In this document: one piece after another, positions 8,475 through 42,758 of the stretch
Layout of the letters: the number at the start of each line of letters is the position of its first letter
Position numbering within the stretch: position 1 is the stretch's first letter
Source: a virus
DNA length: 61,635 bases
Direction: 5' to 3' (one strand)
Virus record (IMG/VR): IMGVR_UViG_3300033049_000033
Coordinates: 64,001-125,635 of that record
Translations under genes and position numbers: made by a program
Notes under the pieces: generated by a model
Told to the model about the DNA's origin: nothing
Seen by the model: the letters and a program-made list of their open reading frames with translations, nothing else
Databases searched by the model: none

Positions 8475-8885
8475 ATGAAGCAACTTACAAAAGTAGAAAT
8501 CATTGACCTCATATTCACTAATGGATATGAGAAGAAGCCCGAAAGTCGAGCAATTAATGTAACCAATAGTGGCTACCAATCAGGATGTTTTTATTACGAT
8601 AAAGAAACTAATCGTAAGTGTGCCGTTGGTGCTTGCATGAACGCCAAAGGCATAAATGACTATGGCGAATTTGGTGGTAGTGTTGAGGGGTTAAGCGAGA
8701 CAATCAAAAATGGTACAAGAAATCAACTGGATGATTATCTCTACAAGAAATATAGTGGACATTCAATTGATTTTTGGCTTGAGGTTCAAGCCTTACACGA
8801 TGTTGCTGCATATTGGGATGAGAAAGGTCTTAATTTAGAGGGTAAAAGAGTCAAAGACCAGTTGATAGAAGACCATTCCGAATAA
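8475..8885 (+). CDS. Conserved phage protein of unknown function
   Basis: ATG 8475 (136 residues); the in-frame ATG at 8448 lies inside the promoter. The centre RKCAVGACMNAKGI and the end FWLEVQALHDVAAYWDEKGL match a family seen in many phages and some plasmids in which a Cys-containing loop precedes a Q.LHD...W motif. No catalytic assignment is possible. The start is near-leaderless. Confidence 0.75.
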   Translation: MKQLTKVEIIDLIFTNGYEKKPESRAINVTNSGYQSGCFYYDKETNRKCAVGACMNAKGINDYGEFGGSVEGLSETIKNGTRNQLDDYLYKKYSGHSIDFWLEVQALHDVAAYWDEKGLNLEGKRVKDQLIEDHSE

Positions 8886-11297: not shown

Positions 11298-11504
11298 ATG
11301 AAAAAAAGTGAACGCATTGTTAATGTGAGATTTTCAGGTCATGGTCATTACAAAGTTACCATAGTCAGATACGGTGTTGAACACACGGCAACCATTGACG
11401 ATATGCCAACAATTGATAACTATAAAGATGGTACAGAGGTTGCAGCTAACAACCTATACGATATGGTCATTAGGAAATGTAACCTCGCCAAGTATTCTTA
11501 TTAA
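11298..11504 (+). CDS. Unknown 68-residue protein
   Basis: Beta hairpins (RIVNVRFSGHGHYKVTIVRYGVEHTATI) followed by a helix (ANNLYDMVIRKCNLAKY). Co-transcribed with the gene before it. Its stop meets the stop of the minus-strand HNH gene (tail-to-tail, 4-base overlap), marking the end of the early plus-strand array. Confidence 0.6.
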   Translation: MKKSERIVNVRFSGHGHYKVTIVRYGVEHTATIDDMPTIDNYKDGTEVAANNLYDMVIRKCNLAKYSY

Positions 11505-12118
11505 CCATACATCTTTAGCACGTTGTTAGAAAAAGTTAATAACGTGTCAACGTTAGCGGAGTTTTTCATTCGATTAGCCAAAAATGAAATAACTTGTATA
11601 TTACCTTTCACGTAACCCTTAGTGGGGTCTATTCTATCTAAAGAAGGTGAAAAATCAGTAGCCTCTGAATTGGAGTACTCTAATGGTACATTCAAAAATG
11701 GACATTCGTTAATCAATATTATGTCCTCACTAAAAATGTTAAACTCAAGTTTACCCTCTTTCGCCCTTTTAGACGCTCCATTATGTAAACGATTCCTAAC
11801 ACTCTTGCCACCATTAGGGATATGATTTTGTAATATTAATATAGTTTCACCATATTCAGAATATAATCTATTAACTACGTTGTCATTAATCATACCAATA
11901 TTCTTTAATACTTTTGGATAATACATTACTAATTCGTATATTTGTTTTTTAGTAGTATTATTAACATCAAATACTACTTCACATAATGTATCGTCTACCG
12001 TAGTGTCACTATCATAACACTCTACAATATATTGTAGAACCGATTCTGGATTGAAGAAATATCTATTATATAATCCACCCCTACGTTTTAATTTTCTTTT
12101 TACTTGTTTTAAGCTCAT
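11501..12118 (-). CDS. HNH-type endonuclease, likely a mobile homing enzyme
   Basis: I start at ATG 12118 (205 residues); the frame stays open upstream only through a low-complexity G-run. The N-terminal half is a helical region of unknown type. The C-terminal third has CPFLNVPLEY, then SPSLDRIDPTKGYVKGNIQV and SFLANRMKN, the arrangement of phage HNH/endonuclease VII-like homing enzymes (a Cys, then SLDRID with GY..GN, then the final N). It is the only minus-strand gene for 19 kb, fitting a free-standing homing gene inserted between operons. An ATATTTATT motif lies just upstream. Confidence 0.75.
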   Translation of the reverse strand: MSLKQVKRKLKRRGGLYNRYFFNPESVLQYIVECYDSDTTVDDTLCEVVFDVNNTTKKQIYELVMYYPKVLKNIGMINDNVVNRLYSEYGETILILQNHIPNGGKSVRNRLHNGASKRAKEGKLEFNIFSEDIILINECPFLNVPLEYSNSEATDFSPSLDRIDPTKGYVKGNIQVISFLANRMKNSANVDTLLTFSNNVLKMYG

Positions 12119-12121
12119 ATT

Positions 12122-12130
12122 AATAAATAT
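12122..12130 (-). promoter_or_regulatory. Late-type promoter motif
   Basis: Minus strand ATATTTATT, three bases before the HNH start codon. Confidence 0.35.
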
Positions 12131-12138
12131 AATACTAA

Positions 12139-12230
12139 ACCCAAAAAGACCCCCTCCCCCGTTAAAACTTCCTACACCCCCCCCCATAGCCCCCTCCTAT
12201 GTAACCCCTCTTATATACCCCCCGTGTACC
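12139..12230. other. C-run tract (G-runs on the minus strand)
   Basis: Several runs of C3 to C9 (C9 at 12177-12185) in an otherwise AT-rich genome, with at least six G-runs of three or more on the minus strand. The region between the HNH gene and the next operon holds no convincing gene. The G-runs could form a quadruplex. Confidence 0.7.
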
Positions 12231-12330: not shown

Positions 12331-12362
12331 TTTGCATATGTCCCACAAAATGCGTATCTTTG
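12331..12362 (+). promoter_or_regulatory. Bacteroidota-type promoter of the 12.3-16.2 kb operon
   Basis: TTTG 12331-12334, TATCTTTG 12355-12362, spacer 20 (CATATGTCCCACAAAATGCG). It belongs to a second class, TTTGCAT..GTC, also at 16211, 20462 and 23117. No other promoter is seen until 16211. Confidence 0.8.
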
Positions 12363-12405: not shown

Positions 12406-12618
12406 ATGATTGATTTAGACAAATATGTGGGTGACACTAAGAGGAGGTTAATTATGACCAAGAGGGGTCATATATCTATAAATATTCACGATGACAATGA
12501 TTTGGATTTAGGTATTTTGATTGAGGGTGTCATACGGGATAAACTCAATGATGGTACCACACTCTATAAATATACACAAACCGTATTAGACTTAACGATA
12601 TTAACGGGTTGGAAATGA
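12406..12618 (+). CDS. Unknown 70-residue protein, first gene of the paralogue operon
   Basis: Start at ATG 12406 (MIDLDKYVGDTKRRLIM); an upstream in-frame ATG exists at 12385. The product is mixed alpha/beta with an acidic loop (IHDDNDLDLGILIEGVI). Its TGA overlaps the next ATG. The N-terminus resembles that of the gene at 12856 (MINLEEYKNRDDL), hinting at relatedness. Function unknown. Confidence 0.55.
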   Translation: MIDLDKYVGDTKRRLIMTKRGHISINIHDDNDLDLGILIEGVIRDKLNDGTTLYKYTQTVLDLTILTGWK

Positions 12619-12863
12619 AATCACTGCATCAATATATTAATAACCCCAATTTCCATTGCTTATGTGTTGGTGAAGAGTGTCTTATAATCCCTACCAATCG
12701 GACAACTGATGGGTTTGATAGTATTATATTCAATATGGCTTTACGTTCGTTAACCCTTAGTCGTAATGTCAGGGAGGCTCAGAGAATAGTGGCTAACTCG
12801 GTACTTCAAGTGCAAAATTTGTCTAAGGTTATACAACCTACATCTATAATTTGGAATGATTAA
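12615..12863 (+). CDS. Unknown 82-residue protein
   Basis: ATG 12615 overlaps the preceding stop (ATGA). It contains HCLCVGEECLIIP and a helical C-terminal half (LTLSRNVREAQRIVANSVLQV). No recognised family. It overlaps the next gene by eight bases, so translation is coupled along the operon. Confidence 0.55.
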   Translation: MKSLHQYINNPNFHCLCVGEECLIIPTNRTTDGFDSIIFNMALRSLTLSRNVREAQRIVANSVLQVQNLSKVIQPTSIIWND

Positions 12864-13011
12864 TTTAGAAGAATATAAAAATAGGGATGACCTTTTCTTA
12901 TTAGCAATGGGTAATGTTGTGCTTAAGGTTAAGTCCCAGAATGTTAACTCACAATTCTCATTGATAGTCAGAGGGGTAATGTTGAGGAATAATAATTTAA
13001 TCAAAACGTAA
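12856..13011 (+). CDS. Unknown 51-residue protein
   Basis: ATG 12856 to TAA 13009-13011. The sequence starts MINLEEYKNRDDLFLLAMGN and continues as beta strands (VVLKVKSQNVNSQFSLIVRG). It overlaps the upstream gene and precedes the paralogue array by 58 bases. Similar to the first gene of the operon in its first ten residues. Confidence 0.45.
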   Translation: MINLEEYKNRDDLFLLAMGNVVLKVKSQNVNSQFSLIVRGVMLRNNNLIKT

Positions 13012-13069: not shown

Positions 13070-13552
13070 GTGATAGAAGATAATTTATATATGATTTTAG
13101 AGGATGGCACCAAGATACTTCTTGAGGTGGGCAGATGCTACGGTGCGTTCGATTATGGTTCATTCGATATGTATATTGATAACAGACAAGAGCATGACGG
13201 TATCTGGTCTGCTAAGTGGGGGGAGAGGCGTGAAGGAAGCCCCGACACTGAATTATACCTACACCTTGAGGGTTTTGTTAATGCCCAATTAAAGCTTAAA
13301 GAGTTGAGTGTGAATGAATATGTTAGAAATCTAAAAATATGGGCTAACGTATCGATTGAGAATCCTGTGGTATTGCCACAGAGTCTTGAATTTGCATATC
13401 TGAGTATTAATGCAGTTTATTCTAATTTGGTGGACTTTGCCCATACTGACACTGATATTGTCATATGCAGTGATGACTCAATAATATTAAACGATTGTCA
13501 TTTATTATCTTATAACAAGATATCCGAGGAGTTTACACATACCGAATGGTAA
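13070..13552 (+). CDS. Tandem paralogue family, copy 1
   Basis: 160 residues from GTG 13070 (an ATG at 13091 is the alternative; alignment to the other copies favours GTG). It shows the family layout: N-terminal YMILEDGTKILLEVGRCYG; central GIWSAKWGE; then leucine-rich turns (LKELSVNEYVRNLKIWANVS, ENPVVLPQSLEFAYLS) and a closing VYSNLVDFAHTDTDIVI. It is the longest copy, with extra residues at the C-terminus. No catalytic motif, signal peptide or membrane helix. Function unknown. Confidence 0.75.
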   Translation: MIEDNLYMILEDGTKILLEVGRCYGAFDYGSFDMYIDNRQEHDGIWSAKWGERREGSPDTELYLHLEGFVNAQLKLKELSVNEYVRNLKIWANVSIENPVVLPQSLEFAYLSINAVYSNLVDFAHTDTDIVICSDDSIILNDCHLLSYNKISEEFTHTEW

Positions 13553-13556
13553 TAAT

Positions 13557-13772
13557 ATGGAAAATAGAGAAATAGATACATTAATATCCTACTACGTCAG
13601 ACTCTGGTCTGACGGCATGTATGAGGTTATAAAAACAATCAAAAAGATAGACATGTCAAGTTGGTCACATACTGAATTATCCAACATTAATGAGGTGGTT
13701 TTTACGGGTCGTATATCGGATTGTGAGAGCTTCATAAATTTAGATAGTCAAAGGTTAATTAAGGATGACTGA
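13557..13772 (+). CDS. Unknown 71-residue protein within the paralogue array
   Basis: Lies between copies 1 and 2 and overlaps copy 2 by eight bases. The helical N-terminus (TLISYYVRLWSDGMYEVIKTI) is followed by SNINEVVFTGRISDCESFIN, which faintly recalls the leucine-rich turns of the family. It may be a divergent or shortened member, but lacks the ILxDG N-terminal motif. Confidence 0.5.
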   Translation: MENREIDTLISYYVRLWSDGMYEVIKTIKKIDMSSWSHTELSNINEVVFTGRISDCESFINLDSQRLIKDD

Positions 13773-14202
13773 TAGGCAAGGATATATGATATTAAAGGAT
13801 GGTCGAAAGGTAACACTATCGCTTGGTTGCGCTTACGGCTCATATGATTACAAACAGGATGACGAAGACGGGAAACGTAAAAATTATCCCCCCACATATA
13901 TGAATACTGGCCATTCCCATGGAGGTGTGGAAGGTTTGAATTGGGGTATGACTTATCCTAATGACGAATATGGTGACGCTTTAATTATTGAGAATACGGA
14001 CATTGAGCTTATTAGTTTGGTATTGCCAAAAGGTATTACTTATCTATCGCTCGACTATAAAATAACGGTTATGGAACCAGTAATCTTACCATCTGGAATG
14101 GAGGGGTTATATGCTGGGTCTAATATAACCTTCACCAACATAGGGGACTTTAGTGATACTGAGGTTGATTTTGTTTTAGGTTATGATAAATATGATGACT
14201 GA
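13765..14202 (+). CDS. Tandem paralogue family, copy 2
   Basis: 145 residues. N-terminus QGYMILKDGRKVTLSLGCAY; centre GGVEGLNWGMTYP; C-terminal turns ISLVLPKGITYLSLDYKIT and MEPVILPSGMEGLYAGS, ending TNIGDFSDTEVDFVL. Relative to other copies it has a longer acidic/His insert (DDEDGKRKNYPP ... GHSHGG) after the first motif. The last 20 bases contain the start codon of copy 3. Confidence 0.75.
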   Translation: MTDRQGYMILKDGRKVTLSLGCAYGSYDYKQDDEDGKRKNYPPTYMNTGHSHGGVEGLNWGMTYPNDEYGDALIIENTDIELISLVLPKGITYLSLDYKITVMEPVILPSGMEGLYAGSNITFTNIGDFSDTEVDFVLGYDKYDD

Positions 14203-14599
14203 CAGTAAAATGATTTTAATGGACGGTACTGAAGTATCGTTAAAACAATTTAGAATATACGACAATAAAGTGTTTGGTACTGCGTATGAAGACTGTAGAT
14301 GTGAATTAGATGGTAGAATATGGTCTGCGAAATGGGCTGATGCCACTTATGATGGTGTTACTTTTAAGCGTGGAGCATTTGCTCTTAATCTACTAATGGT
14401 AGAACCCATCAAAGAATTAATCATAGCTGACGACATAACACATGTCTTTGCCGCTAAAGCAATAGTAAAGCAACCAATTGTAGTACCAACTGGAATTATG
14501 GTTATTATAATAACCAATCATTGTACGATTGTAAACACTGAATTATTCATAGGTGTAGATTCAGCAATTTTGCAGATTATATCAGATGAACGACTCTAA
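14195..14599 (+). CDS. Tandem paralogue family, copy 3
   Basis: I start at ATG 14195 (MTDSKMILMDGTEV), which aligns with copy 2 (MTDRQGYMILKDG); in-frame ATGs at 14183 and 14192 are alternatives. 134 residues. The centre RIWSAKWADATYDG closely matches copy 1. The C-terminal turns are less regular (VEPIKELIIADDITHVF, KQPIVVPTGIMVII) and the NLxDF element is degraded to NTELFIG. Confidence 0.7.
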   Translation: MTDSKMILMDGTEVSLKQFRIYDNKVFGTAYEDCRCELDGRIWSAKWADATYDGVTFKRGAFALNLLMVEPIKELIIADDITHVFAAKAIVKQPIVVPTGIMVIIITNHCTIVNTELFIGVDSAILQIISDERL

Positions 14600-14601
14600 T
14601 C

Positions 14602-15000
14602 ATGAAATCACGATTAGAAGACGGTACAGAATTTGAAGTTAGGCTCAATTATAATTATAGTACGAGAGATTATAATGTGGGTATAACGTATTGTCGTTCT
14701 GGTGAATTAGGGACAACCCTGCGATGGGGCGAGTTAGACTTGACCAAGCCTTGGGTTAGTGATGGTTTGGATAGTTGTGTATTTGAAAATATACGTGGTA
14801 TCCACAGTGGGTATGTGTTGTCATTCGACAGGCTTATATTACCTAAAGACATTCAACAGATATTCATTACTCGTTTTATAACGATAAAGGAGCCTATAAT
14901 GCTACCTAAAACTATAATAGACGTTAAGATACCAAAATATATATCTATATCCAATTTAGAGGAGTTTACGTATATGGAAAATAACATAAGACTAATATGA
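14602..15000 (+). CDS. Tandem paralogue family, copy 4
   Basis: 132 residues. N-terminus SRLEDGTEFEVRLNYNY; centre TTLRWGELDLTKPW; C-terminal FDRLILPKDIQQIFITRFIT, KEPIMLPKTIIDVKIPKYIS, ISNLEEFTYMENNI. The leucine-rich C-terminal module is well preserved. It starts two bases after copy 3 and overlaps copy 5 by four bases (ATGA). Confidence 0.75.
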   Translation: MKSRLEDGTEFEVRLNYNYSTRDYNVGITYCRSGELGTTLRWGELDLTKPWVSDGLDSCVFENIRGIHSGYVLSFDRLILPKDIQQIFITRFITIKEPIMLPKTIIDVKIPKYISISNLEEFTYMENNIRLI

Positions 15001-15398
15001 TAGACGGATACGCAATAGGGTTGGATGGAACGAGATTTTCTATAAAGACTGGACTAATTTATTGTAGTGTTTTCGCACATAGAGACGAATGGGTATCAAC
15101 AATCGAACACTCTGGGTATGACAATGTTAGTATAGTTATACCCCATCTAGGTAATATGGCGTTCATTAATACTATATACCTTGAGGGTTCGGAATTAAGC
15201 CCTATAAGATTAAAATCGTTAGCATTACCATCAAGTGTTAGGGAAGTAGTAATGAACCAACACGTATACATTGAAGATGGTTTTACGTTACCATATGATA
15301 TTAGTTATATTGAACTTGATGGGCGATTATCTATTAACAATTTAACAGATTTTATAGATGATGATAGTGTCAATATAGCTTTATTCACAAATACATGA
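14997..15398 (+). CDS. Tandem paralogue family, copy 5
   Basis: 133 residues. N-terminus DGYAIGLDGTRFSIKTGLIY; the central Trp motif is lost (DNVSIVIPHLGNM instead). C-terminal LKSLALPSSVREVVMNQHVY, EDGFTLPYDISYIELDGRLS, INNLTDFIDDDSVNIA. Coupled by 4-base overlaps to copies 4 and 6. Confidence 0.75.
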   Translation: MIDGYAIGLDGTRFSIKTGLIYCSVFAHRDEWVSTIEHSGYDNVSIVIPHLGNMAFINTIYLEGSELSPIRLKSLALPSSVREVVMNQHVYIEDGFTLPYDISYIELDGRLSINNLTDFIDDDSVNIALFTNT

Positions 15399-15805
15399 AA
15401 AAAGGATACATAATACTGAATACTGGAGAACGTATCAAGATTGAATTAGGTTACACTTATGGTACGTATGACGTATTGGTGGATGCCACAACCACACCAA
15501 TATACGTAGGTGAAGAACTTGTTAGAATTAGGTTAGAGTCTAATGGGTTCGGTCTGGCTGCGACATATTACGAAACAACTATTCATTTTGAATCTAGCAG
15601 TCATCCTTTAATAATTAAAAAGATGGTATTACCAAAGGGTATAACAGAATTACATATTAGTCACGACATTTCAGTTTTGGAGCCTGTATGGATACCTAAC
15701 ACCATTAAAGAGTTAACGATTATGTCGACTGTGACTATAAGTAATTTAGATGAGTTTATTAATAGAGATGATACAATAATAGAATTAACAGTTCCATGGC
15801 TATAA
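15395..15805 (+). CDS. Tandem paralogue family, copy 6
   Basis: 136 residues. N-terminus KGYIILNTGERIKIELGYTY; C-terminal IKKMVLPKGITELHISHDIS, LEPVWIPNTIKELTIMSTVT, ISNLDEFINRDDTIIEL. This is the clearest example of the C-terminal repeat, in which two turns of LP.xI..L.I...I are followed by the NLxxF cap. Overlaps copy 7 by ten bases. Confidence 0.75.
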   Translation: MKKGYIILNTGERIKIELGYTYGTYDVLVDATTTPIYVGEELVRIRLESNGFGLAATYYETTIHFESSSHPLIIKKMVLPKGITELHISHDISVLEPVWIPNTIKELTIMSTVTISNLDEFINRDDTIIELTVPWL

Positions 15806-16209
15806 AGACAGGATACGCAATATTAGATTCAGGAAAACGTATACCCATTAAAGTTGGCCATGCGTATAGTAAAATATCGGCTAAGTTGTTAGGGTTACAG
15901 TTGGAACCTCATAAGCATGATTTGGATTATATTCACGTTGTAGATTATAACAATATTAATATGGTCTTCGAGAAAGACCACACCAAAGTATTATCCATAA
16001 CGGGAGGGGTAGACAATCCATTTATCATCGACAAACTAGAGATACCGATTGAGGTAGAGAGCTTGGAAATACATAACTGGGTCTGGATTAGTACTCCTAT
16101 TACTTTACCAGATAGTATTAAAATAGCTAGAATGCCAAGTCACGTTTCACTAACCAATATAGATGATTTCACTAACAAGAGTGATGTCCGTATCGTTTTT
16201 AGACGATAG
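15796..16209 (+). CDS. Tandem paralogue family, copy 7
   Basis: 137 residues. N-terminus TGYAILDSGKRIPIKVGHAY; C-terminal IDKLEIPIEVESLEIHNWVW, STPITLPDSIKIARMPSHVS, LTNIDDFTNKSDVRIVF. Last member of the array; a fresh promoter begins two bases after its stop codon. Confidence 0.75.
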   Translation: MAIKTGYAILDSGKRIPIKVGHAYSKISAKLLGLQLEPHKHDLDYIHVVDYNNINMVFEKDHTKVLSITGGVDNPFIIDKLEIPIEVESLEIHNWVWISTPITLPDSIKIARMPSHVSLTNIDDFTNKSDVRIVFRR

Positions 16210-16210
16210 A

Positions 16211-16242
16211 TTTGCATTTGTCAAAAACATTTTGTATCTTTG
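16211..16242 (+). promoter_or_regulatory. Bacteroidota-type promoter
   Basis: TTTG 16211-16214, TATCTTTG 16235-16242, spacer 20 of the TTTGCAT class. Confidence 0.8.
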
Positions 16243-16272: not shown

Positions 16273-16671
16273 ATGTATAAAGTAACAGTAAAAGGTAAGG
16301 CCACAGTTGTCGTATCAGATTACGAAGGTAATGATGTGGTATTTGATAACTTATCAGAGCTAAACGGCATTGATTGTCAGGATTGTTTTTGTGACTACAT
16401 TGACGATGATTATGACGGTGCAGTTTCTGGTGGATATATGGACTTCCGATATGAGGATGGCGAGTTAATAACTTACACCGTGTACGATTCCAAAAGAGAA
16501 TTAACTGACGATGAGTTGGCAAAATTGGAAGGGTATACTTCTGGTCAATGGTCAGATGGTATCGGAGAAGGATTCGAGCAGGTTGCATGTGCTGAGGTAG
16601 ATGAAGGTGAAGTATTTATTTCTCCTTGGTTTGGTGGTCAAACAAGAACAATCACTCAAGAAAAAGTATAA
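16273..16671 (+). CDS. Unknown acidic 132-residue protein
   Basis: Beta-rich start (MYKVTVKGKATVVVSDYEGNDVVF), then a very acidic Cys-containing loop (CQDCFCDYIDDDYDG), a helical segment and a C-terminal EVFISPWFGGQTR. It may bind metal through Cys and Asp, but no family comes to mind. It follows its own promoter. Confidence 0.65.
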   Translation: MYKVTVKGKATVVVSDYEGNDVVFDNLSELNGIDCQDCFCDYIDDDYDGAVSGGYMDFRYEDGELITYTVYDSKRELTDDELAKLEGYTSGQWSDGIGEGFEQVACAEVDEGEVFISPWFGGQTRTITQEKV

Positions 16672-20715: not shown

Positions 20716-21099
20716 ATGCCGACAGCATTAACTAAAGACCTACTTAGAGAATCTACTGAGAAGTATGATGACAGAAATATATATGTCACTCTAACCGCAG
20801 ACCAGAAAATAAAGATGAAGCTAAAGGGTATGAAATCTGGAGAGGTTTCTACCAGTATTAGAAGCTTGTATCTTGAATTGTGTGGTTGTGAGGACGAAGA
20901 AGGTACTGCACCTGTTAAAGAGGTTAAGTCCGTTAGTTATACTCGAAAAGAGTCTGGTAAATACGTTCAACCAGACCCAAGGATAGCTAAGGTCATACTA
21001 CAAGATTTGAGAAGTCAAAATGCCATTTCTGGATTAGACATAGAAACATTGGCCAAGTTTGACCAAATTATCGTTAATTTATTACAATCATACAAATGA
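20716..21099 (+). CDS. Unknown 127-residue helical protein
   Basis: Starts with TKDLLRESTEKYDDRNIYVT and contains LTADQKIKMKLKGMKSGEVS, which resembles the helix of ribbon-helix-helix type DNA-binding proteins but is not convincing. The C-terminus is helical. Its stop overlaps the ATG of the SET gene, so the two are coupled and may act together. Confidence 0.6.
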   Translation: MPTALTKDLLRESTEKYDDRNIYVTLTADQKIKMKLKGMKSGEVSTSIRSLYLELCGCEDEEGTAPVKEVKSVSYTRKESGKYVQPDPRIAKVILQDLRSQNAISGLDIETLAKFDQIIVNLLQSYK

Positions 21100-21389
21100 A
21101 ATACCGACCATTACCAGAAAATGTAACGATTAAGAACTCTACAATTGGAGGGTTAGGATTGTTTGCAACCGAAGACATCAGAGAGGGAGTCGAAATAGGG
21201 CTAACCCATATCCCAGAGGAACATGCTCCAAATGGATTTATTAGAACACCTTTAGGTGGATTCTATAATCATTCTGAAGACCCTAACTGTATTAGTACCA
21301 TATTTGCTGGGTTTAGGTTTTTGAGCACTATTAAAGACATAAAAGCTGGGGATGAACTTACTAGTTTTTACACTTTGTACGAGATTTAG
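21096..21389 (+). CDS. SET-domain protein (predicted lysine methyltransferase)
   Basis: 97 residues that cover a compact SET domain. STIGGLGLFATEDIREG is the SAM-binding GxG strand, LGGFYNHSEDPNC is the NHSxxPN motif that forms the pseudoknot, and IKAGDELTSFYTLYE is the GEELTxxY end with the catalytic Tyr. Such domains transfer methyl groups from SAM to protein lysines. It lacks pre-SET and a post-SET zinc site, so it is close to the minimum size. The substrate is unknown; the coupled gene upstream is a candidate partner. Confidence 0.85.
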   Translation: MKYRPLPENVTIKNSTIGGLGLFATEDIREGVEIGLTHIPEEHAPNGFIRTPLGGFYNHSEDPNCISTIFAGFRFLSTIKDIKAGDELTSFYTLYEI

Positions 21390-25823: not shown

Positions 25824-27239
25824 ATGGCTAAGATTGATAAGCGTATTTCGTTTCTCGCTCAGAAGTTTAACGTCTTTGATATCGAAGATGTTGAGGATAA
25901 TGAGGAAGAGTTTACAAAAGCTGGATATAGCGATATTGAGGTGGTGGCAGACCCCCTTACTGAAGATACCATTGCGTTGTTATCGGAGAAGTACCGTAAT
26001 GAGAAGTCGACCAAGAAACTACGTAAGATAGCTGTTGAAATAACCATCTTTGGTAGAATGATTTCTGCCGACCCCACGAACAATAAGCAGTTCGTCCAAT
26101 GGATGTTAACTGTATTCACTAACTTCCTTAAAGACCGAGACATTAGTGAGGCCATCAGGTTTGCCTGTGAAGACCTCCCTAGGGCTAAAGAGTATTTAGA
26201 GGTTTTCGAAGCCAATAAACGTAAGGCCAGCTTTAAGAGGTTCTGTGATAAGAACTTCAGTTTAAGACATATCGATGACTGTACTAATATTGACCAATAT
26301 CACAGCCTTTCAGAGCTATTTGATGCAGTTGACCCATTCATTGAGAAGGATGTATCTGGCCTGAAAAGAGACCTTATGCGTTTCGTTAATAATGGTGATG
26401 CAGAGATTACGTTCAAAGACCGACATTTTATCGTTTACATTCCACTAACCAGAGACGCTTCAACCGTATTTAATAACTTTTCAAATTGGTGTACAAACTC
26501 TCCAGGAAATGGAATGTATAAGAGTTATACCGACAATCTAAGACCAGACAAGAGCAAATCTAAGTTATACGTGATTATTCCGACTGACTATTTTACAGGA
26601 GAAACTGAGGAAATATATCAGCTTCATTTTGAAAGTAACCAATTCATGGATAGAAAAGACCGTAGAGCTAACATTGTAGAACTATTTGACATTAGTGAGG
26701 AGCTATCTGAATACTTCGAAGATGAATTATTTGACATATTGGGTCAGTGTAATTCTATTATCGATAGGAACTATAAGAATTGGTTATTCCAGTTCAATCT
26801 TGGGTATGTTATGTTCTCTTTTATGGACGATAAAATGCTTAATCTCAGGTTCAAGAATGATATGCTTGGTAAAATACCAGATACTATCAGTAGATTCACA
26901 AACTTAAAACACTTAGTTGTGACCAAATGTAGGGTTAAATCAATTGATGAGAATATTGGTGACCTAACCAACCTAACTGTTTTAGGTTTAAATGACAATA
27001 AACTGACCAGATTACCTATAAATCTATGTAAGTTGAAGAGTCTCAAGTTTTTAAGCTTAACTGATAATCCCATTAAGGATATAGATAAGAGCATATCAAA
27101 TTTAGACATATCAAATGGAGGGTCGTTAGAATGGGTGGTGGTATCAAAAAAATCTGTCGCTGACAAATTATCTCGCTATTTACCTAATGCAGAGATAGAC
27201 GTAATCAGCAGAACAAAGCATAGCTACGAGAACCTATAA
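25824..27239 (+). CDS. LRR protein with NWCTN-type phage domain
   Basis: 471 residues in three parts. Residues 1-180 are helical. The middle has FIVYIPLTRDASTVFNNFSN, then WCTNSPGNGMYKSYTD, SKLYVIIPTDYF and YQLHFESNQFMDRKDR, a domain I know from other large phages (W-C-T, a Tyr-rich segment, LYVI, Y.HFES.QF.D..D) without a known function. Residues about 345-440 are leucine-rich repeats (IPDTISRFTNLKHLVVTKCR, LTNLTVLGLNDNKLTRLPIN). The LRRs suggest binding to a protein target, perhaps of the host. It is alone behind its own promoter. Confidence 0.8.
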   Translation: MAKIDKRISFLAQKFNVFDIEDVEDNEEEFTKAGYSDIEVVADPLTEDTIALLSEKYRNEKSTKKLRKIAVEITIFGRMISADPTNNKQFVQWMLTVFTNFLKDRDISEAIRFACEDLPRAKEYLEVFEANKRKASFKRFCDKNFSLRHIDDCTNIDQYHSLSELFDAVDPFIEKDVSGLKRDLMRFVNNGDAEITFKDRHFIVYIPLTRDASTVFNNFSNWCTNSPGNGMYKSYTDNLRPDKSKSKLYVIIPTDYFTGETEEIYQLHFESNQFMDRKDRRANIVELFDISEELSEYFEDELFDILGQCNSIIDRNYKNWLFQFNLGYVMFSFMDDKMLNLRFKNDMLGKIPDTISRFTNLKHLVVTKCRVKSIDENIGDLTNLTVLGLNDNKLTRLPINLCKLKSLKFLSLTDNPIKDIDKSISNLDISNGGSLEWVVVSKKSVADKLSRYLPNAEIDVISRTKHSYENL

Positions 27240-29594: not shown

Positions 29595-29604
29595 CTAAAC
29601 GAAT

Positions 29605-29635
29605 TTTGTTTTCTTAATAAATATACGTATCTTTG
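29605..29635 (+). promoter_or_regulatory. Bacteroidota-type promoter
   Basis: TTTG 29605-29608, TATCTTTG 29628-29635, spacer 19. It lies between the endonuclease gene and the duplicated GNAT tail and would transcribe the transglycosylase gene. Confidence 0.7.
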
Positions 29636-29808: not shown

Positions 29809-30550
29809 ACAGACTATATTTGGACTCGTTTTACTATTCTTAATAGGTGGAGCACAATTCTATCAGAATATTAGGAAAGATAATAATATCAAGGAGATAA
29901 AAGAAATGTTGGAAACACATATAGAGGCTTCTAAGGTAGAAATTAAACTTCCTGATGGGTTTACCTATGTTTATGACCGATTTGCCATCTACAACGCTAA
30001 AATCGATACTCAGACAGTTATTACCTACCTTTCGGTAGTAGATAGTTTCGGGTTGCGAGAAGATAGTACCCATTTTGACTGGTTTATAGGTCAAATACTT
30101 TACGAGAGTGGCGCTAGACAGCGAAAGGCTGATGGTAGTATTCTTAGAGGTACTTCTGGTGAGGTAGGCATAGCACAGATTATGCCTTCAACTGCATTGG
30201 GAGTGTTATCTCAGATTAAAGACCCTAATATCTTATTGAGGTTGGGTGTTCACGATTTCTCATTTGCTAATAATAAATCAATTAAAAAGGTAAATAAAAT
30301 TAAACTAACCATTGAATGGTTAAGTGACATTAATAATAACCTGACATTGTGGGGATATATTATGCGAGGTAAAATGGAACGTAATGGGCTATTAAAAGGA
30401 TTGGTAGCGTACAATGCTGGTACTGGTGGAATGATGAAATTCATCAGTCAATTTCGTAAGCCTGAAAAGCATAAATATATTAAAGGGATTAGGGATACGC
30501 TACGTTATATAGCCAATAAAGGTTTAGTGCCCTCTTTGGAAAGCGTGTAA
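29798..30550 (+). CDS. Membrane-anchored lytic transglycosylase
   Basis: 250 residues. An N-terminal signal anchor (TIFGLVLLFLIGGAQFY) and coiled stalk lead to an SLT-type domain at about residues 85-225: FIGQILYESGARQRK holds the catalytic Glu, GEVGIAQIMPSTALGVL is the GIxQxxP motif and LVAYNAGTGGM is the AYNAG motif. It cleaves peptidoglycan glycan strands to anhydro products. As it is anchored and not next to tail genes, a lysis role is likelier than entry. Its last 27 bases overlap the convergent gene. Confidence 0.9.
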   Translation: MTAKQTIFGLVLLFLIGGAQFYQNIRKDNNIKEIKEMLETHIEASKVEIKLPDGFTYVYDRFAIYNAKIDTQTVITYLSVVDSFGLREDSTHFDWFIGQILYESGARQRKADGSILRGTSGEVGIAQIMPSTALGVLSQIKDPNILLRLGVHDFSFANNKSIKKVNKIKLTIEWLSDINNNLTLWGYIMRGKMERNGLLKGLVAYNAGTGGMMKFISQFRKPEKHKYIKGIRDTLRYIANKGLVPSLESV

Positions 30551-34592: not shown

Positions 34593-34959
34593 AGAGAAGA
34601 TTGAACTGGATGAGTTTATAAAACTAGCAACAAAAGATTGGGACGATGTTCCTACAATTGACGAACGTTATGATGATGAATGGCAAATGGATTTCGTTAT
34701 GGGATTAGGCGAGTATAGCTGGGGTGAAGAGTTTGGGGAAGAGTTTCCTTACGAGTATGTCGAGTCAATAGAGGTTATCGGACATAAGAATAGTTATATT
34801 AACTTCACTATTATCAAGCGTAAGAGTGACGATAAATATTTTGAAATAAGTATTAGACATGGTAGTATGAGTTCCGATATGGAATACGATTCGTTTACTG
34901 AAACCAAAAAGGTGGTTGTAGAACCACGTTGGGAGTTTCAAGATTGGGATATGGATTAA
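34585..34959 (+). CDS. Unknown acidic 124-residue protein
   Basis: Very acidic at the start (FIKLATKDWDDVPTIDERYD) then strands with Tyr/Glu-rich turns (YVESIEVIGHKNSYINFTII, DKYFEISIRHGSMSSDMEYD). Directly upstream of thymidylate synthase in the same operon. Function unknown. Confidence 0.6.
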   Translation: MSKEKIELDEFIKLATKDWDDVPTIDERYDDEWQMDFVMGLGEYSWGEEFGEEFPYEYVESIEVIGHKNSYINFTIIKRKSDDKYFEISIRHGSMSSDMEYDSFTETKKVVVEPRWEFQDWDMD

Positions 34960-34973
34960 AACGAGAAATAGAA

Positions 34974-36344
34974 ATGAATAAATTAGACAAAGATTATCAA
35001 GCACTATTAGCCGATATTTTAGAGAACGGAGTTATTAAAGGTGACCGAACTGGAACTGGAACTAAATCCGTATTTGGTAGGACAATCAGACACAAGATGT
35101 CAGATGGATTTCCACTATTAACAACCAAGAAGATGTTCCATAAAGGAGTATTCACAGAGCTACTATGGCTTCTGAACGGTGATACCAACATCCAGTGGTT
35201 AGTTCAGAACGATTGTAACATATGGGTTGGTGACGCTTATAAAAAGTTTGTTAAATTCATTAGTAATGAATGGAATGGTGGGAACTTAGATAAAATGGTT
35301 GAGGCAGGTTATATCATTGAGACCATGGTTCTTCAAGAGGAGAGTGGGATGGATTTCGATTCAGTTAATTATGCTCCTCTTTCTGAAAAAGGGTTTACTG
35401 AACGAATTAGGGTTGAGGACGACTTTGCTGAGAAGTGGGGAGACTTAGGTCCTATCTACGGAAAACAATGGAGAGATTGGGGCGATAGTACTAACTACAT
35501 TAAGCTTAGAGACGGTGATGAACACAAACTACATACCAAAGGTGTAGACCAAATATCCAAATTGCTTGACGATTTAACTAATAATCCTGACAGCAGAAGG
35601 ATGATGGTTAATGCGTGGAAGGTAGATGAGATTAATCAAATGACTTTGCCGCCATGTCACTACGGATTCCAAGTAACTACTAGAGAATTAAGTTTAGAAG
35701 AAAGAGTTGCCATCTGGGATGAAAGTCATTTGAAAAATGTTAAGCCTGAGAATTCTATGGATAACTTGGATTTAGATGGGGATGGAATACCTAAACGAGC
35801 AATATCTCTATTGTGGATTCAACGAAGTGTTGATACCTTCCTTGGCTTGCCCTTTAATATTGCGTCTTACGGAGCTTTACTAATGATTCTAGGGGAATTA
35901 ACCAATATGGTACCAGACGAGCTTGTAGGACAACTAGGTGACACTCATTTGTACAGTAATCATTTCAACCAAGCTGAGGAACAGATTGGGAGCGAATTAG
36001 ACGTATTCGAAAGATACAATTTAGTGGTTGAGGCTGGTAAGATGACGGATGGTATGGCAGCTAATTTCGATGCTGCGTTTGAAGCGTTAGAGAAATCTGA
36101 CCCTAAAGTGGCATCTACGACTTTATTCGATAGCTGGCATGGTATTTTTGATGAATTTGACGTCATCAGACATACTCGTAAGCCTTATGATTTACCAAAA
36201 TTAAGAATAAATACGGAGTTTTGGAATCCAGAGAACGTACTTGGAACTAATTGGGACGCAATTCTTGAGGGTATCGAGATAGATGACTTCCAATTGGAAG
36301 GTTATGAATCTCACTCAAGAATTAAAGCACCTTTAAGTAACTAA
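34974..36344 (+). CDS. thyA: Thymidylate synthase, enlarged
   Basis: 456 residues from ATG 34974, the natural ThyA start; bacterial ThyA is about 264. Present: GDRTGTGTKSVFGRTIRHKM, FTELLWLLNGDTNIQWL, LGPIYGKQWRDW, SRRMMVNAW, the catalytic Cys in LPPCHYGFQV, FLGLPFNIASYG and GDTHLYSNHFNQ. Insertions after the catalytic site (RELSLEERVAIWDE to IPKRAIS) and after the HLYSNH motif account for most of the extra length. It makes dTMP from dUMP with methylene-folate; the DHFR gene just downstream recycles the folate. Confidence 0.97.
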   Translation: MNKLDKDYQALLADILENGVIKGDRTGTGTKSVFGRTIRHKMSDGFPLLTTKKMFHKGVFTELLWLLNGDTNIQWLVQNDCNIWVGDAYKKFVKFISNEWNGGNLDKMVEAGYIIETMVLQEESGMDFDSVNYAPLSEKGFTERIRVEDDFAEKWGDLGPIYGKQWRDWGDSTNYIKLRDGDEHKLHTKGVDQISKLLDDLTNNPDSRRMMVNAWKVDEINQMTLPPCHYGFQVTTRELSLEERVAIWDESHLKNVKPENSMDNLDLDGDGIPKRAISLLWIQRSVDTFLGLPFNIASYGALLMILGELTNMVPDELVGQLGDTHLYSNHFNQAEEQIGSELDVFERYNLVVEAGKMTDGMAANFDAAFEALEKSDPKVASTTLFDSWHGIFDEFDVIRHTRKPYDLPKLRINTEFWNPENVLGTNWDAILEGIEIDDFQLEGYESHSRIKAPLSN

Positions 36345-39631: not shown

Positions 39632-40887
39632 TGGGTAAGAATTATAAAGATATTGCACGTAAAGCTCTTAGAATGGCTACGGAGAACAAGAATATTCTTA
39701 ATGAAGGGTTTGGATATCCAGAAGGTATGATGGAAAGAATCCACCCCACAATTGAGAAGAATATCATTGAGCGTAAAACCGCTATTGGTGACCACCCTGC
39801 ATTACCTAAAGGTGGTGTTAGAGGTTTCGACCAAAAGTTACTATTAGACCGTTTTTGTGAGGTGGTTAATCGGTATAAAGAAGCCTTTGAGGTTGAACAA
39901 ATAGATGATGAATCCATTAATGCAGAAATGCACCAATTACTTATGGATTGTCAGATGACTGAGCAGCCACATAAAAAGGCATTGGTCGAGTTGGCCGTGA
40001 ATATGGTCAGAGAGGAGTTTGATATGGATGAGGATATGGTTGATATTGAGGCTGATATCACTGAACAAATATCGCTAAGTCCAAATTTAGATAGAGAAAC
40101 TTCAGACGAGGAGTTTGAGATGGAATATGAAAGCCATGAAGATATAGATAGTTCTGAAAAAGAAGTAATGAAGAGACGTATGATTAATGCTCTTATTCAA
40201 GGCGCATCTATGAAGACTAATCATATGTTCAATTTAGTTAACGATGAATTAATGGAGCTGAACCCCACATTGTCAGGTAAATATAAAAAACTTATGGCAT
40301 CTGCTGACTATAGCTACTTTAAGAACTTAGCACCAGCAAGTGGTAATCATACCGCAGGTGGTGTATGTAATATCGAATCAGATGGTGAGAAACCTAAAAT
40401 CATTGCCGAAGCATTAACATTCCCAGTATTGATTCATGAATTGGTTAAGGGTATTATGGAATTGATTTCATTGCATGGATTTACCGAAGACGACCAACTT
40501 AACGAATTCGTTATGAGTCAAGCTGATTTCACTGGTGCAGAACCAAGTGATATGAGAATGGGACCTGCTCTATGGGGAAAATTCACTGGAGCGATTGACG
40601 CTGAAGATAATAAGTATAAACATCACATATACCATAATTTAATTTCTAAGCCCGTAGACGAGTTTAATGAGTGTCTTAGAGAGATATTTGCAGGTACCAA
40701 GAGAGGTAAGAAGTTGATAGAGGATATGGTAGACGAAGTTAAATCCAATATTGAACTTGACGAGATGGCAGAAATTACAGAGGAAGGTGGAGAGTCTTTC
40801 GAGGATATTCAAGCTACTCAGAAACAACTAAGAGACCTACTAAATCGAGACGATTTCGATGATATATTAGGTGGCATGATAGGCTAA
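39631..40887 (+). CDS. Conserved late protein of unknown function
   Basis: 418 residues. The N-terminal 28 residues (YKDIARKALRMATENKNILN, then E/G) follow the leader-plus-LNE pattern. The centre has RRMINALIQGASMKTNHMFN and the conserved-looking ALTFPVLIHELVKGIMELIS; the HELVK is not a full HExxH, so I do not call it a zinc protease. The C-terminus is acidic. It lies just upstream of terminase, where T4-like relatives of Bacteroidota carry a similarly sized uncharacterised protein. Confidence 0.65.
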   Translation: MGKNYKDIARKALRMATENKNILNEGFGYPEGMMERIHPTIEKNIIERKTAIGDHPALPKGGVRGFDQKLLLDRFCEVVNRYKEAFEVEQIDDESINAEMHQLLMDCQMTEQPHKKALVELAVNMVREEFDMDEDMVDIEADITEQISLSPNLDRETSDEEFEMEYESHEDIDSSEKEVMKRRMINALIQGASMKTNHMFNLVNDELMELNPTLSGKYKKLMASADYSYFKNLAPASGNHTAGGVCNIESDGEKPKIIAEALTFPVLIHELVKGIMELISLHGFTEDDQLNEFVMSQADFTGAEPSDMRMGPALWGKFTGAIDAEDNKYKHHIYHNLISKPVDEFNECLREIFAGTKRGKKLIEDMVDEVKSNIELDEMAEITEEGGESFEDIQATQKQLRDLLNRDDFDDILGGMIG

Positions 40888-40931: not shown

Positions 40932-42758
40932 ATGCTAACATCCTCCGAAATATTAACGGAATACGGTAAGTGCGTTTTAGACTCAACCTATCCCATTCAA
41001 ACGTTTTTTAAGACATTTGACAAAACCCAAAATGGGTTTGTTCCATTCAAATTATTTCCAAAACAAGTCGAAATTATCCACGACTATGAGGAATACCGAA
41101 TGAACTTAGTTACCAAGCCAAGACAGGCTGGTATATCCACAACTACAGCCGCATTCCTTGCGGTAGTCGTAGGGTTTGCAAGCAAAGACAACCCAGAAGC
41201 GATTCTAATTGTTGCTAATAAGCAAGATATGGCCTTCGAATTTCTTGGTAAGGTTAAAGATTTTATAAATCAATTACCTAGATGGGTATGGGGTTCCGAA
41301 TATTACGGTACCCCCGAAAAAGAAAAGAAGAAATTATTTGATACTGAATCTAAAAAGGAAATTAGACTTCCTAATGGCTCAAGACTAAAGGCAGTTGCGA
41401 CATCTCCAGATGCATTGCGTGGGTATACTCCTACATACTTAATCATGGATGAGGCTGCATTTATTGATAATGGAGCAGAGCTATTCGCTGCTGCCCTTAC
41501 TTCACTTGGTACTGGTGGACGAGCAACACTCATTTCAACCCCAAATGGGCAAGACCCACTATATTACGAAACATACGAGAATGCCAAGCCAGGAGAACAC
41601 TGTAATGGTTTTAACGTAATTGAAATGCGTTGGTATCAAGATTTAAGATACAATAAAGACCTTAGTTGGTGGAAATGGGCTGACGAAAACAAGACCAATA
41701 AGATTGTAGTCTTAGAGACCAAATTCACGTTTGAATCATACGATAAAATGGTTAAGGACGGATACAAACCAACTTCAAGCTGGTATGAAGAAATGTGTAG
41801 AGCAATGAATAATGATAAACGTATGATTGCTCAAGAACTTGATGTATCATTCCTTGGCTCTGGTGGTAACGTAGTTGATGAAGAGTATATTGAGCATCAC
41901 AAGACTGTTAACGTCATGGAACCAGAGTGGTATGATGATAAGGATAATGTAACTTGGATATGGCAACAACCAATTGAAGACCACGAATATATCTTATCTT
42001 CCGATGTTTCTAGGGGTGATGGTGAAGACTGGTCTACATTCACTATTATTGATTTCACGACAATGGAACAAGTAGTGGAATATCGTGCCAAAGTACCGCC
42101 AGACAAATTAGCACTAATTTTAGACGAATATGGTAGATTATACGGTAACGCATTATTAATTGTAGATATTACGGGTGGTATGGGTACAACCACCACTCTT
42201 AAGCTACAAGAAATGAAGTATCCTAACCTTTACTACGAAGAAAGGGTTAAACCTCTTAAAAAAAGAAAAGAAGAAGGAAAATATCACGAAAGGAATGAAA
42301 CTCCAGGATTCCAAGTTGGCGCTGATAGAAGCAGATTAGTTGCCCAATTTGAAAAGATGATTAGAATTAACTGTGACGAAGGTGCCGATAAAGGTATTAA
42401 AATTAGGTCTAGTAGAATAATCACTGAATTGAACACATTTATTTATAAAAATGGTAGACCTGACCATGCTACGGGTAAGCATGATGACCTTATTATGGCA
42501 ATGGCAATGGCACTATTCGTTATGGAATTCTCTTTTAAGAGATTGAAAGCGTTTAAGTCTAAAACAAAGAACATGTTAGCAAGTTGGGTTATGAATGCTG
42601 CTGACCCAATTGAGGTGGAGGTCACTAAAGGTTCGGGGTTCGTACCGAAGGGCGCTAAGAAAGCTACAGGAAGGCCACCAGCGTTTAATAGGAATGTAAG
42701 TAAAAACATGCAAGACCCAGAAGGTAAATATTTGTGGCTTTTCAGTGGTACACGATGA
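40932..42758 (+). CDS. terL: Terminase large subunit
   Basis: 608 residues, the same size as T4 gp17 (610). ATPase: VTKPRQAGISTTTAAFL (Walker A, about residues 60-76), TYLIMDEAAFID (Walker B), ATLISTPNGQ (coupling motif). Nuclease: YILSSDVSRGDGEDWS (first Asp), LIVDITGGMGTT, and HDDLIMAMAMAL (final Asp pair). It drives DNA into proheads with ATP and cuts the concatemer. No small subunit is adjacent. Confidence 0.98.
   Translation: MLTSSEILTEYGKCVLDSTYPIQTFFKTFDKTQNGFVPFKLFPKQVEIIHDYEEYRMNLVTKPRQAGISTTTAAFLAVVVGFASKDNPEAILIVANKQDMAFEFLGKVKDFINQLPRWVWGSEYYGTPEKEKKKLFDTESKKEIRLPNGSRLKAVATSPDALRGYTPTYLIMDEAAFIDNGAELFAAALTSLGTGGRATLISTPNGQDPLYYETYENAKPGEHCNGFNVIEMRWYQDLRYNKDLSWWKWADENKTNKIVVLETKFTFESYDKMVKDGYKPTSSWYEEMCRAMNNDKRMIAQELDVSFLGSGGNVVDEEYIEHHKTVNVMEPEWYDDKDNVTWIWQQPIEDHEYILSSDVSRGDGEDWSTFTIIDFTTMEQVVEYRAKVPPDKLALILDEYGRLYGNALLIVDITGGMGTTTTLKLQEMKYPNLYYEERVKPLKKRKEEGKYHERNETPGFQVGADRSRLVAQFEKMIRINCDEGADKGIKIRSSRIITELNTFIYKNGRPDHATGKHDDLIMAMAMALFVMEFSFKRLKAFKSKTKNMLASWVMNAADPIEVEVTKGSGFVPKGAKKATGRPPAFNRNVSKNMQDPEGKYLWLFSGTR

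What the first reader, a model, noticed from the sequence alone, without database searches (positions are those of the whole stretch)
13070..16209. Seven tandem, highly diverged paralogues in one operon: candidate undescribed protein family
Seven adjacent genes of 132-160 codons share a common plan despite low identity: an N-terminal (Y/M)ILxDGxxIxLxxGxxY element, in several copies a central W(S/G) motif (IWSAKWGE, IWSAKWAD, LRWGE, LNWG), and a C-terminal leucine-rich module with two turns of LP.xI..L.I...I and a NLxxF cap. They overlap by 4 to 20 bases or abut, sit behind one promoter (12331) and have no internal promoters. Repeated duplication with fast divergence is typical of proteins in conflict with variable targets (host receptors or defence proteins) or of modular ligand-binding sets. 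I recognise no known family.
Basis: partly seen in the sequence, partly recalled or inferred. Interest (0 to 1): 0.75.

Follow-up and report, generated by a model that had tools for sequence, protein, structure and literature searches.

The report
Phage array of small leucine-rich-repeat proteins
A large phage, probably of Bacteroidota bacteria, carries at least 20 strongly diverged copies of one small leucine-rich-repeat (protein-binding) gene in several clusters, a bacteriophage counterpart of the huge repeat-protein families of giant viruses; the copies are most likely intracellular binders used against varied host proteins, but that function is untested.

Summary
Seven ORFs (window 13070-16209) are true paralogues: each is recovered by a profile of the other six (E 1e-10 to 2e-25; 500 shuffles each never above 11 bits). 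They lie between two Bacteroidota-type promoters, at 12331 and 16211.

The same 125.6-kb virus record holds 13 more well-supported members and 2 marginal ones at 28.5-42 kb, so at least 20 paralogues.

'No known family' is partly wrong. This is a short leucine-rich-repeat (LRR) fold. A sister copy matches the solved FNIP protein Crov588 (E=6e-7), the family profile matches Crov588 and BspA-type LRRs (1.8e-7, 6e-6), and its model matches YopM/IpaH LRRs. The motif defining FNIP (FGxxFN) is absent. The N-terminal cap matches nothing in PDB sequences, and no relative was found in the phage records searched.

Most likely function: host-promoter-driven, cytoplasmic protein-binding scaffolds, for counter-defence or host takeover (inference). 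Closest parallel: giant-virus FNIP expansions. New variant of a known kind.

The parts
11501..12187 (-). HNH-type (homing-endonuclease-like) gene next to the operon, opposite strand; possible driver of duplication, not a family member
   Evidence: phrog_3322 endonuclease E=3.4e-24, endonuclease VII 2.7e-11
12331..12362 (+). Bacteroidota-type -33/-7 promoter (TTTG-N20-TATCTTTG) at the head of the array
   Evidence: motif 20 found vs 1.6 expected in window
12406..12618 (+). small ORF a1 (70 aa, MIDLDKY...), probably related to a3
   Evidence: local alignment a1/a3 reached by 28 of 2000 shuffles
12609..12863 (+). small ORF a2 (MKSLHQY...), related to a3
   Evidence: a2/a3 reached by 2 of 2000 shuffles
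12856..13011 (+). small ORF a3 (51 aa) that begins with the family's C-terminal cap motif (INLEEYKNRDD); possible offshoot of a family member
   Evidence: best non-family hit of the C-cap profile, E=0.006, 0 of 2000 shuffles; 35-nt DNA repeat at 77% with 15737-15771
13070..13552 (+). copy 1, 160 aa, LRR mini-protein
13557..13772 (+). interposed 71-aa ORF, membership not shown
   Evidence: no significant family profile match
13765..14202 (+). copy 2, 145 aa
14183..14599 (+). copy 3, 138 aa
14602..15000 (+). copy 4, 132 aa
14997..15398 (+). copy 5, 133 aa
15395..15805 (+). copy 6, 136 aa; modelled with mean pLDDT 83; FNIP-repeat match
15796..16209 (+). copy 7, 137 aa
16211..16242 (+). next Bacteroidota-type promoter, marks the end of the unit
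   Evidence: 73% identical over 48 nt to the 12331 promoter region

Best explanation
A lineage-specific family of at least 20 small cytoplasmic leucine-rich-repeat proteins in a large T4-like myovirus, probably of Bacteroidota. Each protein has an N-terminal beta-hairpin cap (..ILxDGxxIxLxxGxxY..), about 3-4 short LRR turns of 19-21 residues (LPxxIxxLxIxxx) and an N-(L/I)-xx-F cap. The array in the window is read as one unit from a host-type promoter, so probably early. The proteins have no signal peptide, transmembrane segment or enzyme domain, so they most likely act as stoichiometric binders of host proteins such as defence, regulatory or metabolic factors. Repeated tandem duplication and fast divergence gave each copy its own target. 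Shown: homology, copy number, operon layout, LRR-type repeat. Inferred: early timing, protein binding, counter-defence or takeover role.
For: Paralogy. 13 further members at 28.5-42 kb of the same record. LRR identity: copy 6 hits the FNIP repeat at 19.1 bits alone and 23.5 bits with its neighbour, against a cut-off of 21. Sister copy L010:8929-9333 against Crov588 (FNIP LRR) E=6e-7; whole-family profile against Crov588 1.8e-7 and BspA-type LRRs 6e-6 to 1e-4. Model of the sister copy (pLDDT 78) matches YopM, IpaH and SDS22 LRRs with probability 0.97-0.99, YopM 1g9u at TM 0.51 and 2.5 A rmsd over 96 columns. Model of copy 6 (pLDDT 83) has strands about every 22 residues, and its weak fold hits are enriched in FNIP and LRR proteins. 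LP-to-LP period is 21 in the window array and 19-20 elsewhere. Host-type promoters before and after. No secretion signals. About 25 kb upstream of terminase, portal and capsid genes. A syntenic relative lacks the second cluster after the shared flanking genes. Tandem amplification of counter-defence genes is documented in T4-like phages (PMC9391042, PMC13096335).
Against: No partner, expression or phenotype data. The window copies alone do not hit any solved structure, and the fold match of the window copy itself is weak (best E 0.44 viral, 2.3 PDB), so the LRR assignment of the window array rests on its homology to the sister copies. The asparagine ladder of classical LRRs is lost in the window copies. 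Excess variability on the exposed strand positions is not significant (p=0.06). With only 3-4 repeats the binding surface is small.
Confidence: 0.45

Rival explanations
1. They are LRR mini-proteins that bind phage components (replication-factory or assembly scaffold, or each other as hetero-oligomers) rather than host targets; divergence reflects subunit specialisation.
For: Co-transcription of seven copies; one FNIP protein forms a cap-swapped dimer, and structural roles in virus factories were proposed for the CroV FNIP proteins (PMC9525666).
Against: Star-like tree with very long branches is more than subunit specialisation needs; absent from related phages with 58-78% identical capsid protein, so not part of conserved phage machinery.
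Confidence: 0.25
2. Virion, tail-fibre or receptor-binding modules.
For: BspA-like repeat proteins do occur beside tail-type genes in related phages (L221, L222).
Against: The array is far from the structural module, consists of separate 132-160 aa ORFs, has no tail-fibre or chaperone match, and sits behind host-type promoters among small ORFans.
Confidence: 0.07
3. Duplication without strong function: a selfish or neutral tandem expansion seeded by a neighbouring homing-type endonuclease, most copies decaying.
For: HNH-type gene directly upstream; possible truncated offshoots (a3 begins with the family's C-cap).
Against: All copies are intact, with conserved core positions (entropy 1.26 vs 2.1-2.3 at exposed sites) despite more than one change per site between copies: long purifying selection on the fold. 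No second copy of the endonuclease in the record.
Confidence: 0.1

Closest known systems
FNIP / FGxxFN LRR families of giant viruses and Dictyostelium (PF05725; Crov588, Crov539)
   Same: Large lineage-specific expansion in one virus genome (about 70 in CroV, 82 reported in Megavirus baoshan; PMC9525666); short LRR of 21-22 residues with LP/IP sub-motif; no attached enzyme in CroV; best sequence match of the family profile
   Different: No FGxxFN motif and so no double phenylalanine spine; only 3-4 repeats instead of 12-25; own N-terminal cap; in a bacteriophage; tandem operon behind a host-type promoter
IpaH/YopM-type bacterial LRR
   Same: 20-residue repeat with LP motif; best fold match of the modelled sister copy (TM 0.51)
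   Different: No E3-ligase domain seen; few repeats; phage gene; no secretion context
BspA-type LRR (PF13306)
   Same: Profile matches to solved BspA-like proteins 4fdw, 4h09, 4fd0
   Different: Own record has no PF13306 match; no signal peptide; different repeat length
Segmentally amplified counter-defence loci of T4-like phages (tifA; SegB-driven amplification)
   Same: Tandem copy expansion in a T4-like phage, with an HNH-type endonuclease nearby (PMC9391042, PMC13096335)
   Different: Those are recent near-identical copies; these are ancient or fast-diverged (over one change per site). Function here unknown

Membership tests
LRR superfamily | tandem repeats of about 20-30 residues with LxxLxL strand | tested here: met
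   LP-to-LP periods 19-21, strands about every 19-23 residues in models
LRR superfamily | statistical match to known LRR proteins | tested here: met
   Crov588 6e-7 / 1.8e-7, BspA-type 6e-6 for sister copy and whole family; the seven-copy profile alone: none
LRR superfamily | fold match to solved LRR structures | tested here: met
   Sister copy: YopM/IpaH/SDS22 probability 0.97-0.99, though E values are above 0.03; window copy 6 only weakly
LRR superfamily | asparagine (N/C) ladder LxxLxLxxNxL | tested here: inconclusive
   Seen in sister copy L010:8929-9333 (CGDNEL, ATNNPNL), not in the window copies
FNIP (PF05725) | Pfam cut-off 21 bits | tested here: inconclusive
   One of 22 proteins: 19.1 bits alone, 23.5 with neighbouring match
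FNIP (PF05725) | FGxxFN / FNx7IP motif and phenylalanine spine | tested here: not met
   Motif absent from all copies by reading the alignments; only the LP/IP half present
BspA LRR_5 (PF13306) | Pfam cut-off 27.7 bits | tested here: not met
   Best 13.1 bits; none in own record
IpaH/YopM effectors | secreted effector with LRR (plus NEL ligase domain in IpaH) | tested here: not met
   No other domain in any copy; phage context
Phage counter-defence protein | inhibits a defence system | not testable with these tools
   needs experiment; padloc not searched with these proteins

The most novel reading that the evidence does not exclude
A bacteriophage keeps a repertoire of 20 or more intracellular LRR binders, diversified by gene duplication like the giant-virus FNIP families or, loosely, lamprey VLRs, each neutralising a different host defence or control protein early in infection.
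Probability: 0.3. Interest if true: 0.8.

Novelty: new variant of a known kind. Interest (0 to 1): 0.57.

Why it matters
Paralogous expansions of LRR proteins are known from giant viruses, where their function is unknown. A phage with a comparable expansion of very small, single-domain copies would bring the question into a bacterial system where deletion, expression and pull-down are easy. If the copies are counter-defence binders, they would point to many Bacteroidota defence proteins at once.

Tried and rejected
Curated families: no convincing match in Pfam, PHROGs or NCBIfam apart from FNIP. Weak profile hits in two related phage contigs (L203, L205) looked like relatives but lie in no credible open gene of the locus. 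Hits in G008 and LR745206 contain several stop codons and were rejected. LRR_5 hits in G009, G041, G042 and G046: those of G009 and G041 read are large BspA-like proteins beside tail-type genes, not small tandem copies. Family tree: unresolved, long branches, no inference on duplication order. Binding-face variability: p=0.06, not claimed. Intra-population selection: second contig identical over the array. N-cap alone against solved structures: nothing. Scan of bacterial genomes with a sister copy: no relative. A profile search across Bacteroidota genomes could not be run for lack of a genome handle. The 71-aa ORF 13557-13772 as an eighth copy: not supported.

Full report
1. What is there. A profile of any six finds the seventh among 683 ORFs of the record with E between 1e-10 and 2e-25, while 500 shuffles of each protein never exceed 10.7 bits. 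They are homologous beyond doubt. A 71-aa ORF (13557-13772) lies between copies 1 and 2 and is not a demonstrated member. The unit is framed by two copies of the Bacteroidota -33/-7 promoter (12331-12362 and 16211-16242). This motif is strongly enriched in the window (20 vs 1.6 expected), none lies between, and the two promoter regions resemble each other over 48 nt. Established knowledge of this promoter class makes a Bacteroidota host and host-polymerase, hence early, transcription likely; both are inferences.

2. It is larger than the finding. The window is 64001-125635 of a 125,635-base IMG/VR virus record. The seven-copy profile finds further members at 28.5-35.4 kb and 39.4-42 kb of that record. 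Leave-one-out profiles support 13 of these (24-67 bits, except 19 bits for the one at 40575; shuffles at most 15.6, and always below the true score); the ORFs at 29880 and 40301 are marginal. That makes at least 20 paralogues. Four of the distant ones (33532, 34929, 40575, 41595) share a C-terminal CxxC...HxC stretch, possibly a zinc site. The tree is a star with terminal branches around 1-2.9 changes per site, so duplication order cannot be read.

3. Fold. Copy 6 matches the FNIP repeat (19.1 bits alone, 23.5 with a neighbouring match, cut-off 21). Sister copy L010:8929-9333 finds the crystallised FNIP LRR protein Crov588 at E=6e-7, and the 22-row profile finds Crov588 (1.8e-7) and BspA-type LRRs (6e-6 to 1e-4). 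AlphaFold2 gives copy 6 mean pLDDT 83 with strands about every 22 residues. Its Foldseek hits are individually weak but many of the best carry the names FNIP or LRR. The model of the sister copy (pLDDT 78) matches almost only LRR proteins, e.g. YopM 1g9u with probability 0.99, TM 0.51, 2.5 A over 96 columns, although E-values stay above 0.03. The LP-to-LP period is 21 in the window array and 19-20 in several others. I therefore assign the C-terminal module to the LRR superfamily. The link for the window copies is partly transitive: the seven-copy profile alone hits no solved structure. The N-terminal hairpin cap found no match in PDB sequences.

4. Distribution. tblastn with four members against 50,697 phage records found nothing except chance-level hits of the LRR-rich sister copy in Listeria phage records. 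Profile searches of about 57 other viral and phage records, most of them relatives picked by the protease, capsid or terminase gene and including megaphages up to 735 kb, found no credible member. The only other contig with the array is a near-identical 33.9-kb fragment. In a syntenic relative (L209) the two genes that precede the second cluster are conserved but the cluster is absent. Many of these records are fragments, and pattern-based scans find only close relatives, so absence elsewhere is not proved.

5. Phage identity. The terminase is T4-like (28.9% to Flavobacterium phages of the Immutovirus group, 30.6% to Microcystis phage Mel-JY01). Portal and major capsid match T4-type PHROGs, and the capsid is 73% identical to that of a 345-kb contig. 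The record has no end repeats and is probably a fragment of a larger genome.

6. How it may work. None of the 20 solid members has an N-terminal signal or convincing transmembrane segment (copy 3 reaches 1.97 in a 19-residue window, in its repeat core), and no enzymatic domain is found. LRRs are protein-binding scaffolds (established). A set of co-transcribed, host-promoter-driven, diverged binders absent from relatives fits counter-defence or host takeover. T4-like phages are known to amplify counter-defence genes in tandem (PMC9391042), sometimes driven by homing endonucleases (PMC13096335), and an HNH-type gene lies directly upstream of this operon (11501-12187). That is suggestive only: those copies are recent and identical, these are old. 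The small ORF at 12856 begins with the family's C-cap (0 of 2000 shuffles; DNA repeat) and may be an offshoot of a family member.

7. Comparison. Giant-virus FNIP proteins are the nearest parallel: about 70 in CroV and 82 in Megavirus baoshan, function unknown, thought to bind varied ligands (PMC9525666). The defining FGxxFN motif is absent here, so these are not filed as FNIP proteins although they may work like them. Verdict: real, a new phage family within the LRR superfamily, a new variant of a known kind; function inferred.

Noticed in passing
L011:2268-2744 (record 42268-42744, +): Phage record encodes a c-type cytochrome with a CxxCH haem motif and a hydrophobic N-terminal segment (Cytochrom_C E=3e-10).
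   Followed up: partly
window 21096-21389 +: Small SET-domain protein (E=1.4e-9), matching a phage family of unknown function (phrog_28741).
   Followed up: partly
window 25824-27239 +: 471-aa protein with a classical LRR_4/LRR_8 stretch at 354-426, a different LRR type from the array.
   Followed up: partly
L010:13532-14038, L010:14929-15429, L011:575-1072, L011:1595-2059: Four distant family members carry a C-terminal CxxC...HxC stretch, a possible zinc site fused to the LRR.
   Followed up: no
window 29596-29608: The near-identical contig IMGVR_UViG_3300029226_000033 differs from the window only by about 26 inserted or substituted bases clustered here, just upstream of a Bacteroidota-type promoter at 29605.
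   Followed up: no
window 16273-16671 +: Gene just after the array has relatives in 635- and 735-kb megaphages (68.8% and 50% identity over about 80 residues).
   Followed up: partly
window 34929-36344 +: Thymidylate synthase of 471 aa whose family match is split in two stretches (residues 13-359), possibly an insertion.
   Followed up: no
L010:8480-8540: An intrinsic-terminator-like hairpin (ACGCCATAGGA-TTTCCTATGGCGT then T-run) ends directly before the second cluster begins at 8540, with no host-type promoter between.
   Followed up: partly
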